A stretch of DNA of 64,000 nucleotides from Halobacillus litoralis. GTDB taxonomy: Bacteria; Bacillota; Bacilli; Bacillales; Halobacillaceae. The notes under the pieces were generated by a model. The model searched no databases. It saw only the letters and a list, made by a program, of their open reading frames with translations, and had not been told where the DNA came from. Every line of letters begins with the position of its first letter. The stretch's first letter is position 1. Both the position numbers and the translations under genes were made by a program. Below, one piece after another: positions 2,972-40,712 of the stretch. The stretch is from assembly GCF_004101865.1 (NCBI RefSeq), contig NZ_CP026118.1:496001-560000 (forward strand), read 5' to 3'.

Positions 2972-3333
2972 CAAAAGCGCAAGCGCCTTGTCACCCCCGA
3001 CAAGCATAAGCAAACCTTTGAAGTGGCGGTTTGTGCCACAGCAAAGGGCTTGCTAATGACCTCGAGGGGGTAGGCGCTGGAGCTGGACGAACAAAAGCGC
3101 AAGCGCCTTGATCAGCCTCGACAAGCTTAAGTCCATTACTCCTGTGAAGCGATCTTTCTTTACAGGAGTAATGGACTTAAGACCTCGAGAGGCTAGGCGC
3201 TGGAGCTGGATGAAACAAAAGCGCAAGCGCCTTGATCACCCCCGACAAGCATAAGCAAACCTTTGAAGTGGCGGTTTGTGCCACAGCAAAGGGCCTGCTT
3301 ATGACCTCGAGGGGGTAGGCGCTGGAGCTGGAT
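2972..3333 (+). repeat. Family A palindromic repeat, three tandem copies
   Basis: Three units of about 120 bp (2972-3088, 3091-3212, 3214-3333). Each begins with AAAGCGCAAGCGCC and ends with TAGGCGCTGGAGCTGGA, so the ends pair through AGCGCCT/AGGCGCT. Outer segments are nearly constant; the inner stem-loop varies between copies (the middle copy holds a TCCATTACTCCTGT hairpin). The unit can fold into one long hairpin. It starts 8 bp after the def stop. Confidence 0.9.
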
Positions 3334-3387
3334 GAATCAAAAGCGCAACAATCCTGAATAATTAGAAAAGGCGCCTGATTTCGTTGA

Positions 3388-3739
3388 GGAAACTGAAGAA
3401 CGGCATCTTTTGAGGTATTCATCCAATAAAGAAGCTGAGTTGGACGATTTTATCCTTTAACTCGCCTTCTTTCAATGGACAAGAAAAAAGAGTGAATTTC
3501 TTTGTTTTTATATCAAAGAAATTCACTCTTTCTAAATGGGCCTCTGTTGATTCCACGATGAGCGTTCGGTGTGACGCCTGCGGGAACAGCACGAGCTGAA
3601 GATCCACTTGGTCAAGTGATCTTCTTGGCCAATTCAGCTGAGGCCGTGCCCGCGGCAAGCATCCACCGACAAGCGATTCGTGAGAAACAATAACAAACAT
3701 TAACAGCTTCTCTAGATTGAGAAAGGTTTTTCAGTGGTC
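3388..3739 (+). mobile_element. Family B MITE-like element, copy 1 (352 bp)
   Basis: Starts GGAAACTGAAGAAC and ends GTTTTTCAGTGGTC, imperfect inverted ends shared with the other family-B copies. It contains the shared core of the family (internal hairpin around AGAGTGAATTTCTTTG, then the TGACGCCTGCGGGAACAGC region). No gene is visible inside. It lies between the two arms of a terminator: AAAAGGCGCCTGA at 3366-3378 and its exact complement at 3749-3761. Confidence 0.8.
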
Positions 3740-3748
3740 ATTTTTCAT

Positions 3749-11187: not shown

Positions 11188-11210
11188 AATTTCACCTCCG
11201 AAGTATCTAA

Positions 11211-11590
11211 TGCGCAAGCGCCTTGGTCACCCCCGACAAGCTTAAGACAAGGCTCGCCGTGACGTTCTTTGTCACAGAGAGAATTGACTTAAGACCTCGA
11301 GGGGGTAGGCGCTGAAGCTGGATGGATCTAATGCGCAAGCGCCCTGAAAGACACGAAACGCATAAGCAAAACGGCCTGTGGAAGGTGCTCTCCCCTTCCA
11401 CAGGACGGGTTGCTTATGTCGCGAGTGGCTGGGGGCTGAAGCTGGATGGATCTAAGCGCAAGCGCCTTGGTCACCCCCGACAAGCTTAAGACAAGACTCG
11501 CCGTGACGTTCTTTGTCACAGAGAGGATTGACTTAAGACCTCGAGGGGGTAGGCGCTGGAGCTGGATGAATCTAATGCGCAAGCGCCTCA
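11211..11590. repeat. Family A palindromic repeat, three tandem copies plus a fragment
   Basis: Units at about 11211-11325, 11332-11445 and 11450-11565, then a truncated AATGCGCAAGCGCC end at 11574-11590. The first and third are nearly identical; the middle one has a different inner hairpin (CTGTGGAAGG/CCTTCCACAG). Units are joined by a GGATGGATCTAA-type spacer, pointing to tandem duplication. Confidence 0.9.
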
Positions 11591-11610
11591 AAAAATTCCT
11601 GGCCAACAAA

Positions 11611-14412: not shown

Positions 14413-14533
14413 GAACAAAAGCGCAAGCGCCTTGCTCAGCCTCGACAAGCTTAAGACGATCCTCGCCGTGACGTCCTTTGTCACAGAGAGGATGGACTTA
14501 AGACCTCGAGAGGCTAGGCGCTGGAGCTAAATG
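14413..14533 (+). repeat. Family A palindromic repeat, single copy
   Basis: AAAGCGCAAGCGCC at the left and TAGGCGCTGGAGCT at the right, with inner hairpin built from CTTAAG arms as in the other copies. Confidence 0.9.
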
Positions 14534-14600
14534 ATAAAAAAACCACAGATTAGCGCTCTGTGGAAGGTGAAAAATATACTTTATAATCTTTTAAAATAAG

Positions 14601-15370: not shown

Positions 15371-15440
15371 CAGTCCAGTCCCCTACCCTTTATCGATGTT
15401 ATATTTTGATAGGCAAAAAAATAGAGCGGCATAAATGCGT

Positions 15441-15848
15441 GGCCACTGAAAAAACCTTTTCAATCTAAAGGAGCTGTTAAAGTTTGTTGTTGATTCACAC
15501 GAATCGCTTGTCGGTGGATGCTTGCCATAGGCCCGACCTCAGCTAACTTGCTCAAGAAGATTCCTTGACCAAGTGGATCTTCGGCTCGCGCTGTTCCCGC
15601 AGGCGTCACCACCAAACGCTCATCGTGGAATCAACGAGGCCTATCTAAAAAGAGTGATTTTCTTTTATTAATCAAAAAAACAGCCTGCGTGTACAAGGGT
15701 CAGGGGGTATATTCACTGTCAATATCAAACGAATACTAAAGCTCATGGATGATTTCCTCGGAATAAAGAAGCCGAGTTGAACGATAAAATCGTCCTACTC
15801 GGCTTTTTTCTTTGATGCATAACTCAGAAAGTTGCAGTTCTTGTAGCC
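15441..15848 (-). mobile_element. Family B MITE-like element, copy 2 (about 408 bp)
   Basis: Starts GGCCACTGAAAAAACC and ends GTTCTTGTAGCC, a slightly decayed end. In reverse orientation to copies 1 and 4. It holds an extra segment (around GTACAAGGGTCAGGGGG) also present in copy 5. Flanked by AAAAAATAGAGCGGCAT (15416-15432) and the near-exact complement ATGCCTGCTCTATTTTTT (15856-15873), the arms of the cydAB terminator. Confidence 0.8.
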
Positions 15849-15855
15849 TCGCGTA

Positions 15856-15873
15856 ATGCCTGCTCTATTTTTT
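15856..15873 (-). terminator. One arm of the cydAB terminator split by a family B element
   Basis: This segment overlaps the cydB stop codon and pairs with 15416-15432 (one extra base). Without the intervening element the two would form a 17-bp terminator stem followed by TTTTTT. Confidence 0.7.
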
Positions 15874-16878
15874 CCCTTTCACATAATCCGCATCAAAGAG
15901 GAACATGCGCATCAACAGAATCAAGGATGGAATCAAAAGCAGTAAACCGGCGATGAAAACGATGATCAGTGCGACGGCCATCGCTTCGTTCGTCACCCCG
16001 CTCGTAAGCGTTACATAGGGTTTTAATAGATACGGCAGGTGTGACGCTCCATAACCGAAGAAGGCGACAAAGAACTGCATCATCACAGCAATGAAAGCCC
16101 ATCCGTAATATTTCCCTGTATAGACGAGAAAGACAGCGATCATGAAGAAGCCGACGGAAATTCCGAATACCCACCATAGCTCGATGGCGCGTTGGAAATG
16201 ATCCATATTTTGCTGGCTTAAAGCGATGAACGTCGTCAAACTGGCAATAATCGTTGGTGAACTCCAGAACAACGCATATTTCCGAACGATTTCAAGAGCT
16301 GGTTCATCTCCTGCCCGATCGGCGTAATAAGTGAGAAACATGGAACTTATATAAAGTACCGAGACTATCGCGAGAAAGACAACACTCCAGGAATAGGGGC
16401 TCGTTAATAATTCTCCGAATAACAACTGTACTCCATTGGCTGTTTCTTCAATATATCCGCCTTCTGAAATCGTCAGCGCAGTCGATAATGAAGCAGGAAT
16501 CAGAAGTCCTGTCGCTCCATAGAGGAACATGTAAAAATGGTTATTCTTCGATCCATAGTTTTCAAACGCATAAAAGGAACCACGGATGGCAAGGAGTACG
16601 ATTGCAATACTACCTGGAATGAGTAAAGCTTGACCAAAATAGTAAGCCATATCCGGAAAGAAACCGATCAATCCGACGAAGAAGAAGACGAAGAAGACAT
16701 TCGTCACTTCCCACACCGGTGATAAATATCTGGAGATCAGCTGGTTGATCAAGTGATCTTTCTTGGTGAGTTTTGCATAATAGGCGAAAAAACCAGCACC
16801 GAAATCTACAGAGGCTACAATCAAATATCCATAAAGGAATAACCAAAGCACTGTAATTCCAATCAATTCATAACTCAT
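15865..16878 (-). CDS. cydB: Cytochrome bd quinol oxidase subunit II
   Basis: Membrane subunit of the cytochrome bd oxidase, which reduces oxygen with menaquinol. 337 residues with eight or nine hydrophobic membrane segments; the N-terminus (LWLFLYGYLIVASVDFGAG) is characteristic of CydB/CyoB-like YthB proteins. Overlaps the cydA stop by 4 bp (ATGA-type coupling). A neighbouring cydCD pair is not present. Confidence 0.92.
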   Translation of the reverse strand: MSYELIGITVLWLFLYGYLIVASVDFGAGFFAYYAKLTKKDHLINQLISRYLSPVWEVTNVFFVFFFVGLIGFFPDMAYYFGQALLIPGSIAIVLLAIRGSFYAFENYGSKNNHFYMFLYGATGLLIPASLSTALTISEGGYIEETANGVQLLFGELLTSPYSWSVVFLAIVSVLYISSMFLTYYADRAGDEPALEIVRKYALFWSSPTIIASLTTFIALSQQNMDHFQRAIELWWVFGISVGFFMIAVFLVYTGKYYGWAFIAVMMQFFVAFFGYGASHLPYLLKPYVTLTSGVTNEAMAVALIIVFIAGLLLLIPSLILLMRMFLFDADYVKGKK

Positions 16879-28245: not shown

Positions 28246-28430
28246 AAACCGCCACTTCAAGCGTTTGCTTATGCTTGTCGGAGCTTTCAAGGCGCATACG
28301 CTTTTCATTTTGATCCAGCTTCTGCGCCTAGCTCCTCGGGGTCATAAGCAAGCCCCTTGCTGTGGCATAAAACCGCCACTTCAAGCGTTTGCTTATGCCT
28401 GTCGGAGCTTTCGAGGCGCATACGCTTTTC
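28246..28430 (-). repeat. Family A repeats in minus orientation, one complete and one partial
   Basis: Two divergent units read on the minus strand as AGCGTATGCGCC...TAGGCGCAGAAGCTGGAT, with inner arms CATAAGCAAACGCTTGAAGTGGCGG, cited here as CATAAGCAAACGC. The complete unit begins immediately after the dapH stop codon. Confidence 0.8.
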
Positions 28431-29150
28431 TTAATTATCCAATTTTCGTAATTCTTGTTTGATTTCTGTTTTTGATTTTGTTTGGTCGTCGATTTTTTTG
28501 ATCACTTTCGCTGGGGTTCCTGCTACCAGGGTGTTCGCTGGTACGTCTGCTGTGACGATGGAGCCTGCAGCGACTACAGATCCTTCGCCGACAGTCACGC
28601 CTTCCAATACGACCGCATTCGCTCCGATTACGACCCCGTCTTCAATCACGACTGGGCTGGCAGAAGGCGGTTCAATCACACCGGCTAATACGGCACCAGC
28701 ACCTATGTGGCAGTTCTTCCCTACAGTTGCGCGGCCACCAAGGACGACGTTCATATCAATCATCGTCCCTTCGCCGACAACAGAACCGATATTGATCATT
28801 GCACCTAGCATAATGACCGCGCCATCTCCGATTTCAACCTGATCACGGATGATTGCACCTGGTTCAATGCGGGCATTCACTTTCTTCAAATCAAGCAAAG
28901 GAATCGCTGAATTACGACGGTCATTCTCAAGCACGTAATCATCGATCTCGTTCTGATATTTTTCTAAAAGAGGCTGAATCACTTTCCACTCTCCGAAGAT
29001 CACACCAGAATTTTCGGATAAGAAATCTTGTACTTGTTCACCGAAATCAAGGTTCTCCAAGTTTTCCCCTTTGAGATAAACTTTGACCGGGGTCGATTTT
29101 TCACTATTTGAAATAAATGAAATGATTTCATTTGCGTCCATTTGCTTCAT
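28431..29150 (-). CDS. dapH: Tetrahydrodipicolinate N-acetyltransferase
   Basis: Transfers acetyl from acetyl-CoA to tetrahydrodipicolinate, first committed step of the acetyl lysine branch. 239 residues; N-terminal alpha domain, then from about residue 95 a left-handed beta-helix of hexapeptide repeats ([20 protein letters not shown] and similar). The ATG at 29150 follows GGAGG by 8 nt. Works with PatA (44917-46071) and DapL. Confidence 0.94.
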
Positions 29151-36672: not shown

Positions 36673-36676
36673 ATTC

Positions 36677-36862
36677 AAAAGCGCAAGCGCCTCGAACAGC
36701 CTCGACAAGCTTAAGAACATTAGGCCTGTGGAGCGGTTTTCTTCACAGTAAAGGTATAGAGGAAGTTCGGCTAAAATCACAACATCCTGTTGCAACGCCG
36801 AACGACCCCACATCGTGTGGGGCCAAGACCTCGAGAGGCTAGGCGCTGGAGCGGGACGATGC
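36677..36862 (+). repeat. Family A palindromic repeat with enlarged loop
   Basis: Begins AAAGCGCAAGCGCC 4 bp after the DUF4396 stop and ends TAGGCGCTGGAGCGGGA. The inner part is longer than in other copies and holds ACGACCCCACATCGTGTGGGG-type hairpin, cited as CCCCACA/TGTGGGG. Confidence 0.8.
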
Positions 36863-36913
36863 AAAAGCGCAAGCGGATCCGGTTCGAATAAGACAGTATT
36901 TTTAAATACAATG

Positions 36914-40292: not shown

Positions 40293-40314
40293 AAAGAGCC
40301 GCTGATTCACAGGT

Positions 40315-40667
40315 GGCCACTGAAGAACTGCAACTTATTGAGTTATGCATCAAATAAAGAAGCCGATTTGGACGATAAAATCGTCCAAATCGGCTTCTTT
40401 CAATGTACAAGGAAAAAGAGTGATTTTCTTTGTTTTTAAATCAAAGAAAATCACTCTTTTTAGGTAGGCCTCGTTGCTTCCACGATGAGCGTTCGGTGGT
40501 GACGCCTGCGGGAACAGCGCGAGCCGAAGATCCACTTGGTCAAGTGATCTTCTTGACCAAGTTAGCTGAGGCCGTGCCCGCGGCAAGCATCCACCGACAA
40601 GCGATTCGTGAGAAGCAACAACAAACGTTAACAGCTCCTCTAGATTGAGATGGGTTCTTCAGTGGCC
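40315..40667 (+). mobile_element. Family B MITE-like element, copy 4 (353 bp, intact ends)
   Basis: Left end GGCCACTGAAGAAC and right end GTTCTTCAGTGGCC are perfect 14-bp inverted repeats. Inside: an AAGAAGCCGATTTGGACGAT-type hairpin, a second hairpin from AAAGAGTGATTTTCTTTG, then the common GC-rich core. Flanked by CGCTG (40300-40304) and CAGCGTTTTTTT (40676-40687), short terminator arms. Confidence 0.85.
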
Positions 40668-40712
40668 TCGATCCACAGCGTTTTTTTCTGAGCAGGCTCT
40701 TTAAGTGTTCAA

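What the first reader, a model, noticed from the sequence alone, without database searches (positions are those of the whole stretch)
15416..15873. Family B MITE inserts into the loops of intrinsic terminators (best case: cydAB)
The element at 15441-15848 is flanked by AAAAAATAGAGCGGCAT and ATGCCTGCTCTATTTTTT, complementary except for one extra base. Removing the element restores a terminator at the cydB stop. Four other copies in the window show the same placement with quite different arm sequences, so the arms belong to each target, not to the element. A mobile element that recognises terminator hairpins and keeps both arms would be placed where it does least harm and could change termination efficiency. 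I know of group IIC introns and some IS elements that use terminators, but not of this element.
Basis: seen in the sequence. Interest (0 to 1): 0.78.

Follow-up and report, generated by a model that had tools for sequence, protein, structure and literature searches.

The report
Mobile element inserting into terminator hairpins
A small, roughly 100-copy DNA parasite in a salt-loving Halobacillus is a shrunken IS1182-type jumping gene that inserts into the tip of hairpin-forming DNA, mostly the hairpins that end genes, and some relatives hit the same kind of hairpin in a different, lineage-specific way.

Summary
The element (15439-15850) lies between two arms that rebuild a strong terminator at the cydB stop. 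Of 97 distinct core copies, 47 have both ends delimited. Their true flank pairs are more complementary than cross-paired flanks (0 of 20,000 permutations). Where the target palindrome is strong, its dyad axis coincides with the middle of that duplication.

The element is a MITE of the IS1182 family: its left 240 bp match the 5' end of a full-length Thalassobacillus IS, and its middle encodes a remnant of the transposase C-terminus. IS relatives with the same ends behave alike: exact 8-bp duplication in 19 of 24, centred palindrome in 16 of 21.

Hairpin targeting by IS1182-family IS1272/TnSha1 is published, but those delete hairpin sequence and make no duplication. Here the arms stay and the loop is duplicated. 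Another IS1182 group duplicates the entire hairpin (24 of 25 copies). New variant of a known kind; recognition of a folded hairpin is inferred.

The parts
15439..15850 (+). MITE copy (IS1182-family deletion derivative)
   Evidence: sequence; 72 aligned pieces in the own genome with only 40 of 139 candidates scored; 98 core matches, 0 in reversed control
15439..15455 (+). left terminal inverted repeat (GTGGCCACTGAAAAAAC)
   Evidence: Resembles GAGGCCACTGAAAAA ends of full-length IS1182-family elements
15834..15850 (+). right terminal inverted repeat, two bases lost (..CAGTTCTTGTAGCCTC; other copies ..GTTCTTCAGTGGCCTC)
15439..15680 (+). 5' non-coding region of the parent IS
   Evidence: 87% identical over 242 nt to full-length IS L195, 88% over 246 nt to deleted IS L147/L219
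15691..15750 (+). remnant of the transposase C-terminus (VQGSGGIFTVNIKRILKLMD)
   Evidence: compare IQGAMAIFTVNLKRIMKLMEE (L198) and LQAAMAIFTVNIKRILKLMEK (L194)
15765..15809 (+). internal hairpin with flanking A/T runs, terminator-like on both strands
   Evidence: Fold -23.8 (+) and -23.7 (-) kcal/mol; 55 of 97 copies match it at 30 or more of 45 bases, with 6 to 19 of 19 pairs; the strict terminator scan reported none
15415..15432 (.). left arm of the interrupted terminator
15856..15873 (.). right arm of the interrupted terminator; overlaps the cydB stop codon (15865-15867)
15431..15438 (.). left copy of the 8-bp target duplication (ATAAATGC), eroded partner at 15852-15859 (CGTAATGC), 5 of 8 identical
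15865..16878 (-). cydB, whose terminator is the target (start codon not examined)
   Evidence: PF02322; orthologues in congeners
3386..3741 (-). second copy, arms AAAAGGCGCCTGA / TCAGGCGCCTTTT
   Evidence: L036
18702..19106 (-). third copy, arms AAAAAACACCG / CGGTGCCTTTT; ends read by eye
   Evidence: L030; failed the automatic end filter
40313..40669 (-). fourth copy, duplication CTGTGGATC / CTGTGAATC inside ACGCTG..CAGCGG
   Evidence: L016
59110..59540 (-). fifth copy, rearranged inside; second end and target not resolved
   Evidence: L039

Best explanation
The element is a non-autonomous derivative (MITE) of an IS1182-family insertion sequence with ends GAGGCCACTGAAAAA...TTTTTCAGTGGCCTC. 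A DDE transposase supplied in trans joined the element ends to the two strands of a dyad-symmetric target, about 4 nt on either side of the dyad axis. That gives an 8-bp duplication spanning the loop and leaves both arms in place. The arms differ from site to site, so what is recognised is most simply the self-pairing of the target (extruded cruciform, or hairpin in single-stranded DNA) rather than a sequence. In Bacillaceae intergenic DNA such palindromes are mostly intrinsic terminators, so the element collects just behind genes. Shown here: family, parentage, duplication, centring on the palindrome, empty orthologous sites with terminators. Inferred: the folded substrate, transposition in trans, and termination by the element's own internal hairpin after insertion.
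For: Parentage: NF033551 (IS1182) 355 bits against a cut-off of 270 for the intact relative L136; matching ends; left 240 bp 87-88% identical to full-length L195 and deleted L147/L219; transposase C-terminal remnant. Target: duplication >=7/8 in 25 of 47 against 2.0% of cross-pairs; palindrome profile peaks at offset 0 from the duplication centre; centred palindrome >=7 in 16 of 29 MITE and 16 of 21 IS sites against 19 of 1508 and 22 of 1092 controls. IS relatives in several genera: exact 8-bp duplication in 19 of 24. In other genomes 8 of 9 resolved copies have a 7-8/8 duplication. Empty sites: same arms at the same place in G013 for L026 and in G009/G016 for L019; hairpin at the cydB stop in G004, G005, G014. 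A gene 3' end lies within 80 nt in 27 of 47, only a 5' end in 3, neither in 17.
Against: 13 of 29 distinct MITE sites lack a strong ungapped centred palindrome; several of these lie in other repeats (L013, L018, L023) that I judge, by eye only, to be imperfect hairpins. 50 of 97 copies could not be delimited and were not counted. A looser control (best palindrome anywhere within 12 nt of a shifted point) reaches score 7 in 9% of MITE and 18% of IS controls. No IS1182-family transposase was found in the own genome, so mobility today is unproven. The cydAB copy itself has an eroded 5/8 duplication. No same-species empty site was available, and my terminator filter is lenient (it also passed an outgroup with a weak hairpin, L183).
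Confidence: 0.87

Rival explanations
1. Selection, not targeting: the element inserts widely, but insertions survive only in terminators and other harmless intergenic places.
For: No ORF of 120 codons or more spans any of the 47 delimited copies. Terminators sit in harmless places.
Against: Selection does not explain why the centre of the 8-bp duplication falls on the dyad axis: of sites with score >=7, 14 of 16 (MITE) and 13 of 16 (IS) are centred within 0.5 nt, all within 1.5 nt. Harmless insertion a few bases beside the hairpin should be as common.
Confidence: 0.05
2. The transposase recognises a duplex feature of terminators, such as an A-tract and T-tract flanking a GC-rich segment, or a protein bound there, not the folded hairpin.
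For: A T-rich run 8-33 nt from the centre on at least one side in 22 of 29 MITE and 17 of 21 IS sites, against 20% and 26% of shifted controls.
Against: Centring on the dyad within 0.5 nt in most strong sites is easier to explain by symmetry itself; Bacteroidota sites L203 and L206 have a palindrome without a T-run; another IS1182 group duplicates exactly the self-complementary segment.
Confidence: 0.2
3. IS1272-like stem-loop replacement: the hairpin was cut out and the complementary flanks are only the remaining lower stem.
For: IS1272/TnSha1 belong to the same family and hit terminators (passages of PMC4923244, PMC5678879).
Against: Those make no duplication and delete hairpin sequence; here an 8-bp duplication is present and reconstructed sites have the arm sequence of orthologous terminators.
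Confidence: 0.03
4. The arms belong to the element (long, variable terminal repeats).
For: The arms abut the element at each site.
Against: Arms differ between sites while ends are conserved; cross-pairs are less complementary; the same arms occur in congeners without the element at that place.
Confidence: 0.01

Closest known systems
IS1272 and TnSha1/TnSha2 (IS1182 family, staphylococci); Furi 2016 PMC4923244, Wan 2017 PMC5678879 (passages read)
   Same: Same family by the papers' own naming; targets are stem-loops, several confirmed terminators, with no primary sequence preference.
   Different: They delete part or all of the stem-loop and give no target duplication. Here the arms stay and 8 bp of the loop region are duplicated, which is 'pathway c' of Wan's model, drawn there as one possible outcome.
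IS1182 family at large (said to include members that target palindromes: Siguier 2015 as cited in PMC4923244; the review itself is not held)
   Same: NF033551 transposase; inverted-repeat ends; palindromic targets in some members.
   Different: Duplication length differs: 8 bp here, 17-34 bp (whole hairpin) in another group, none in a third; 4 bp is tabulated for ISPse1 (PMC3281130) and ISCaa15 (PMC3196728), passages read.
IS elements inserting into REP palindromes (e.g. PMC1525189; search listing and start of abstract only)
   Same: Extragenic palindromes as targets.
   Different: REPs are one repeated sequence; here the arms are unrelated from site to site.
Group IIC introns at terminators (recalled)
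   Same: Use intrinsic terminators as insertion sites.
   Different: Retroelements without terminal inverted repeats or target duplication; this was not searched for here.
Bacterial MITEs in general (review PMC10969869, passages read)
   Same: Short, non-coding, inverted-repeat ends, target duplication, high copy number.
   Different: The passages shown name no MITE with hairpin-loop targeting; the text search found no mention of IS1182 in that review.

Membership tests
IS1182 family (as a non-autonomous derivative) | Parent transposase matches NF033551 above cut-off | tested here: met
   L136 355.4 bits, cut-off 270
IS1182 family (as a non-autonomous derivative) | Element ends shared with the parent IS | tested here: met
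   GAGGCCACTGAAAAA-type ends in L136/L194, L195, L198 and others
IS1182 family (as a non-autonomous derivative) | Internal sequence derived from the parent | tested here: met
   5' 240 bp 87-88% identical; transposase C-terminal codons
IS1182 family (as a non-autonomous derivative) | Transposase source in the same genome (not defining, bears on present mobility) | tested here: not met
   0 matches in G000 for PF05598, PF13751, NF033551
MITE | Short, no intact gene, inverted-repeat ends, target duplication, many copies | tested here: met
   241-456 bp in 46 of the 47 delimited rows (one nested pair in L097 was called at 620 bp); 97 distinct copies; duplication
IS1272-type stem-loop replacement | No target duplication, hairpin removed | tested here: not met
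   Duplication >=7/8 in 25 of 47; orthologous arms intact
Group IIC intron | Intron RNA and reverse transcriptase, no inverted-repeat ends | not tested
   No RNA-family or reverse-transcriptase search was run; inverted-repeat ends and duplication argue against it

The most novel reading that the evidence does not exclude
IS1182-family transposases of several clades choose targets by folded DNA (hairpin or cruciform), and each clade has its own strand-transfer geometry on the same substrate: at the loop edges (8-bp duplication, arms kept; this element), at the 5' feet of the stem (the complete hairpin duplicated, 17-34 bp), or at the 3' feet (hairpin lost, no duplication; IS1272 type). A MITE that carries its own terminator-like hairpin then swaps a gene's terminator for its own, which would make terminators a low-cost landing site.
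Probability: 0.5. Interest if true: 0.78.

Novelty: new variant of a known kind. Interest (0 to 1): 0.64.

Why it matters
It separates two questions that were tangled for IS1272: that this family uses hairpins, and what it does to them. The 8-bp clade marks the position of strand transfer relative to the dyad axis, and the comparison of clades suggests one substrate with several outcomes, which can be tested in vitro. It also gives a simple reason why such elements reach about 100 copies without hitting genes, and it offers a natural assay for where palindromes extrude in living cells.

Tried and rejected
Rejected: selection alone (does not explain centring); arms as part of the element (orthologous arms in congeners); IS1272-style replacement for this element (duplication present). 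DUF772 search for an autonomous partner in the own genome found none, as did PF13751 and NF033551. The consensus terminator scan of 15390-15900 found nothing, perhaps because its stem rule is strict; folding was used instead. NCBIfam did not name the cydB protein; Pfam did.

First-pass errors: loci with minus-strand matches were read on the wrong side of cydB and were redone; the ends of L196, L197, L200 and L224 were mis-picked and were redone; the longest ORF was not the transposase in some loci and was replaced. It also called all 24 relatives autonomous; 5 are internally deleted.

Rows dropped: 50 of 97 MITE copies whose ends failed thresholds; 12 of 47 with duplication below 6/8, which include the cydAB copy, and 6 near-identical sites from the palindrome count; 6 of the 41 loci not examined, 11 of the 35 examined dropped and 3 more of 24 with duplication below 6/8; 4 transposases with stops in the translated range (L205, L206, L212, L231). 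Of the 11 element groups, G080 and G069b were not scored; L382 was fetched but not used. In one search only matches reaching near the query end were read (13 of 20 matching congeners for L019, 8 of 16 for L026, 15 of 19 for L096). One search scored 40 of 139 first-look candidates.

Paper searches: searches gave nothing on this element; led to IS1272, ISPse1 and ISCaa15 only. PMC4438569 and PMC9208149 were looked at in passages; the second reports IS1182 among families over-represented between convergent genes, which fits.

Full report
Setting. The window is G000:C1:496001-560000 of a 4.28-Mb genome. The transposase of a congener (G002, L136) is 100% identical to one in Halobacillus aidingensis, so the genus is Halobacillus by inference. 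The gene whose terminator is interrupted is cydB (PF02322).

Observation. The element at 15439-15850 is bounded by AAAAAAATAGAGCGGCAT and ATGCCTGCTCTATTTTTT. Without the element and one eroded copy of an 8-bp repeat the site is a terminator that starts in the last codons of cydB and overlaps its stop codon (55-nt site -26.1 kcal/mol). Three of the four other window copies show the same placement; the one near 59.5 kb is rearranged and unresolved.

Genome-wide test. A 25-nt core pattern has 98 places in the own genome and none for the reversed control; 97 distinct copies were read and 47 had both ends delimited by similarity to the element alone, without regard to the flanks. True left/right flank pairs are more complementary than cross-pairs (8.98 against 5.92; 0 of 20,000 permutations). 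Single sites are noisier: 20 of 47 reach the 95th and 10 of 47 the 99th percentile of cross-pairs. An 8-bp direct repeat matches at 8/8 in 16, 7/8 in 9, 6/8 in 10 and fewer in 12 of 47, against 0.4%, 1.7% and 5.3% of cross-pairs for 8, 7 and 6. With the element and one repeat removed, the mean palindrome score along the site peaks at the centre of the repeat and falls to background within about 2-3 nt. In 29 distinct sites with a repeat of at least 6/8, 16 have a palindrome of score >=7 within 1.5 nt of that centre and 19 have >=6; shifted controls give 19 of 1508 for >=7 and 3.8% for >=6. With a looser control, best palindrome anywhere within 12 nt of a shifted point, 9% reach 7. A T-rich run lies beside the arms in 22 of 29 (control 20%). 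A gene's 3' end (ORF of 120 codons or more) lies within 80 nt in 27 of 47 copies, only a 5' end in 3, neither in 17, and no such ORF spans a copy.

What the element is. Congeners carry IS1182-family elements (8 of 22 genomes searched have PF13751). L136 (G002) has a 485-aa transposase (NF033551, 355 bits, cut-off 270) between GAGGCCACTGAAAAA and TTTTTCAGTGGCCTC with the repeat GACGCAGT on both sides. L147 (G014) is an internally deleted version with a 153-aa remnant. The left 240 bp of the window copy are 87% identical to the 5' end of a full-length element in Thalassobacillus devorans (L195) and 88% identical to L147/L219; a 70-nt stretch of the middle matches, at 76%, the 3' end of the transposase gene of L198/L204. 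That stretch reads QGSGGIFTVNIKRILKLMD, against QGAMAIFTVNLKRIMKLMEE in L198. The element is therefore 5' end plus last transposase codons plus 3' end of an IS1182-family IS. The own genome gave no transposase of this family.

The relatives behave alike. A scan of public genomes gave 41 loci. I examined 35; 24 had both ends: 18 of IS size, 5 internally deleted, one longer, some with broken transposase genes, and several being copies of one element in one genome (e.g. L196, L197, L200, L224). 19 of 24 have an exact 8-bp repeat, against 0.2% of cross-pairs, and in 16 of 21 distinct sites the palindrome is centred on the repeat, against 22 of 1092 controls (looser control, 18%). Examples: AAAAAGAGCCA-AGGCAGAC-TGGCTCTTTTTT (Aneurinibacillus, L216), AAAAGACCAA-CCCGAGGG-ATTGGTCTTTT (T. 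devorans, L207), AAAAAGCCT-GTTTAAAT-AGGCTTTTTT (Neobacillus, L201). Two Bacteroidota sites (L203, L206) show the palindrome without a T-run. Two Halobacillus sites (L193, L194) have the exact repeat but a weak palindrome (score 4). Among relatives' copies fetched with the MITE query, 9 rows had both ends resolved; 8 have a repeat of 7 or 8 of 8 and one has 4 (one of the nine is the deleted IS of L147).

Empty sites. Behind cydB, all 15 congeners in that search (of 21 known here) have a hairpin with T-rich tail starting within about 50 nt by my filter; in G004, G005 and G014 a hairpin starts at the stop codon as in the reconstructed site (in G014 that one lacks a T-run). The filter is lenient and also passed a weak hairpin in an outgroup, L183. 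For three further copies the filter found a terminator in 13 of 13 (L019), 8 of 8 (L026) and 12 of 15 (L096, two of them weak) congeners read. Terminators are common behind genes, so the telling cases are those with the same arms: G013 has AAATGGCTCC..GGAGCCATTT where the L026 copy sits between those arms, and G009 and G016 have AACCGACCTTG..CAAGGTCGGTT and a longer form where the L019 copy sits between ACCGGCCTTG and CAAGACCGGT. For L096 no congener read had the same arms. The loop is where the element lies.

Other IS1182 clades. In 120 genomes of the order, 40 have IS1182 transposases over the cut-off. I fetched 60 copies and scored nine elements from 55 of them. Four elements (G093, G034, G066, G069a) have direct repeats of 17-34 bp in 24 of 25 copies; each repeat is itself a palindrome (score 6-15; control >=6 in 12 of 192) and in 23 of 24 its dyad axis is exactly the centre of the repeat: the entire hairpin has been duplicated. 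Several G093 copies sit in near-identical hairpins and are not independent. Two elements of the GAGGSCACTGAAAAA type (G065, G089) have 8-9 bp repeats in 6 of 7 copies. Three elements with GGGACAAAA ends (G036, G121, G140) have no repeat in 22 of 23 copies, the exception being a local tandem repeat; their flanks are often A-rich then T-rich, but arm complementarity is little or not above cross-pairs (G036 mean 5.6 against 4.2, G121 3.5 against 3.3, G140 2.0 against 2.5), so hairpin targeting there is inconclusive in my data. On a tree of 18 transposases the three types form three groups (support 100/100, 88/89, 100/100). Rows were labelled by element type; L202, in the 8-bp group, shows no clear repeat itself (4/8).

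Mechanism. Wan et al. (PMC5678879, passages) drew three possible outcomes for a DDE transposase acting on a cruciform: attack at the 3' feet (loss of the stem-loop, their IS1272), at the 5' feet (duplication of the stem-loop) and at the 5' edge of the loop (duplication of the loop). The elements here match the third and second drawings. Sequence-independent dyad symmetry as the common feature is the argument for a folded substrate; it is an inference. After insertion at cydAB the original terminator is split by about 410 bp, and a strong hairpin that cydAB transcripts would then meet is the element's own at 15765-15809 (-23.7 kcal/mol on that strand). 55 of 97 copies match that hairpin at 30 or more of 45 bases; pairing ranges from 6 to 19 of 19 pairs, and some copies have changes on both sides of a pair (L016, L104, L099, L085, L105).

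What is known. Furi et al. (PMC4923244, passages) report TnSha1/IS1272 inserting into hairpins, several confirmed as terminators by RNA-seq, with partial deletion and no duplication, and cite Siguier 2015 for palindromic targets in the IS1182 family. Two IS1182 members are tabulated with 4-bp repeats (ISPse1, PMC3281130; ISCaa15, PMC3196728; passages), so the family is not uniform. A large survey finds IS1182 over-represented between convergent genes (PMC9208149, passages), which fits. In my searches (titles and starts of abstracts, plus passages of the papers named) I saw no description of an IS1182-family MITE, of 8-bp loop duplication, or of complete-hairpin duplication; most subscription papers and ISfinder itself are outside that library, so parts may be recorded there. 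From memory, ISfinder gives the family a wide range of repeat lengths.

Verdict. New variant of a known kind.

Noticed in passing
window 2973-3357, 11207-11591, 14416-14556, 36676-36881; inverted at 28246-28441: A second intergenic repeat family (..AAGACCTCGAGGGGGTAGGCGCTGGAGCTGGATG..AAAAGCGCAAGCGCCTTG..), several copies spaced 122-124 or 244 bp apart.
   Followed up: no
L018, L020, L021, L028, L032, L068, L076, L081, L086, L091, L094, L107: About twelve copies share one left flank (CGGGTTTTCTTTATGAAGC..CATACTTGAGGCC), so the MITE seems nested in another repeat that was itself amplified.
   Followed up: no
L060 (G000:C1:3157415-3158003) and L097: Core copies in direct tandem, 282 bp apart.
   Followed up: no
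G093, G034, G066, G069 (L338-L357, L386-L390): IS1182-family elements flanked on both sides by a full copy of the target hairpin (17-34 bp repeats).
   Followed up: yes
window 15765-15809 and 55 of 97 copies: Internal hairpin kept with some changes on both sides of a pair between copies, as if pairing were conserved; no formal covariation test was run.
   Followed up: partly
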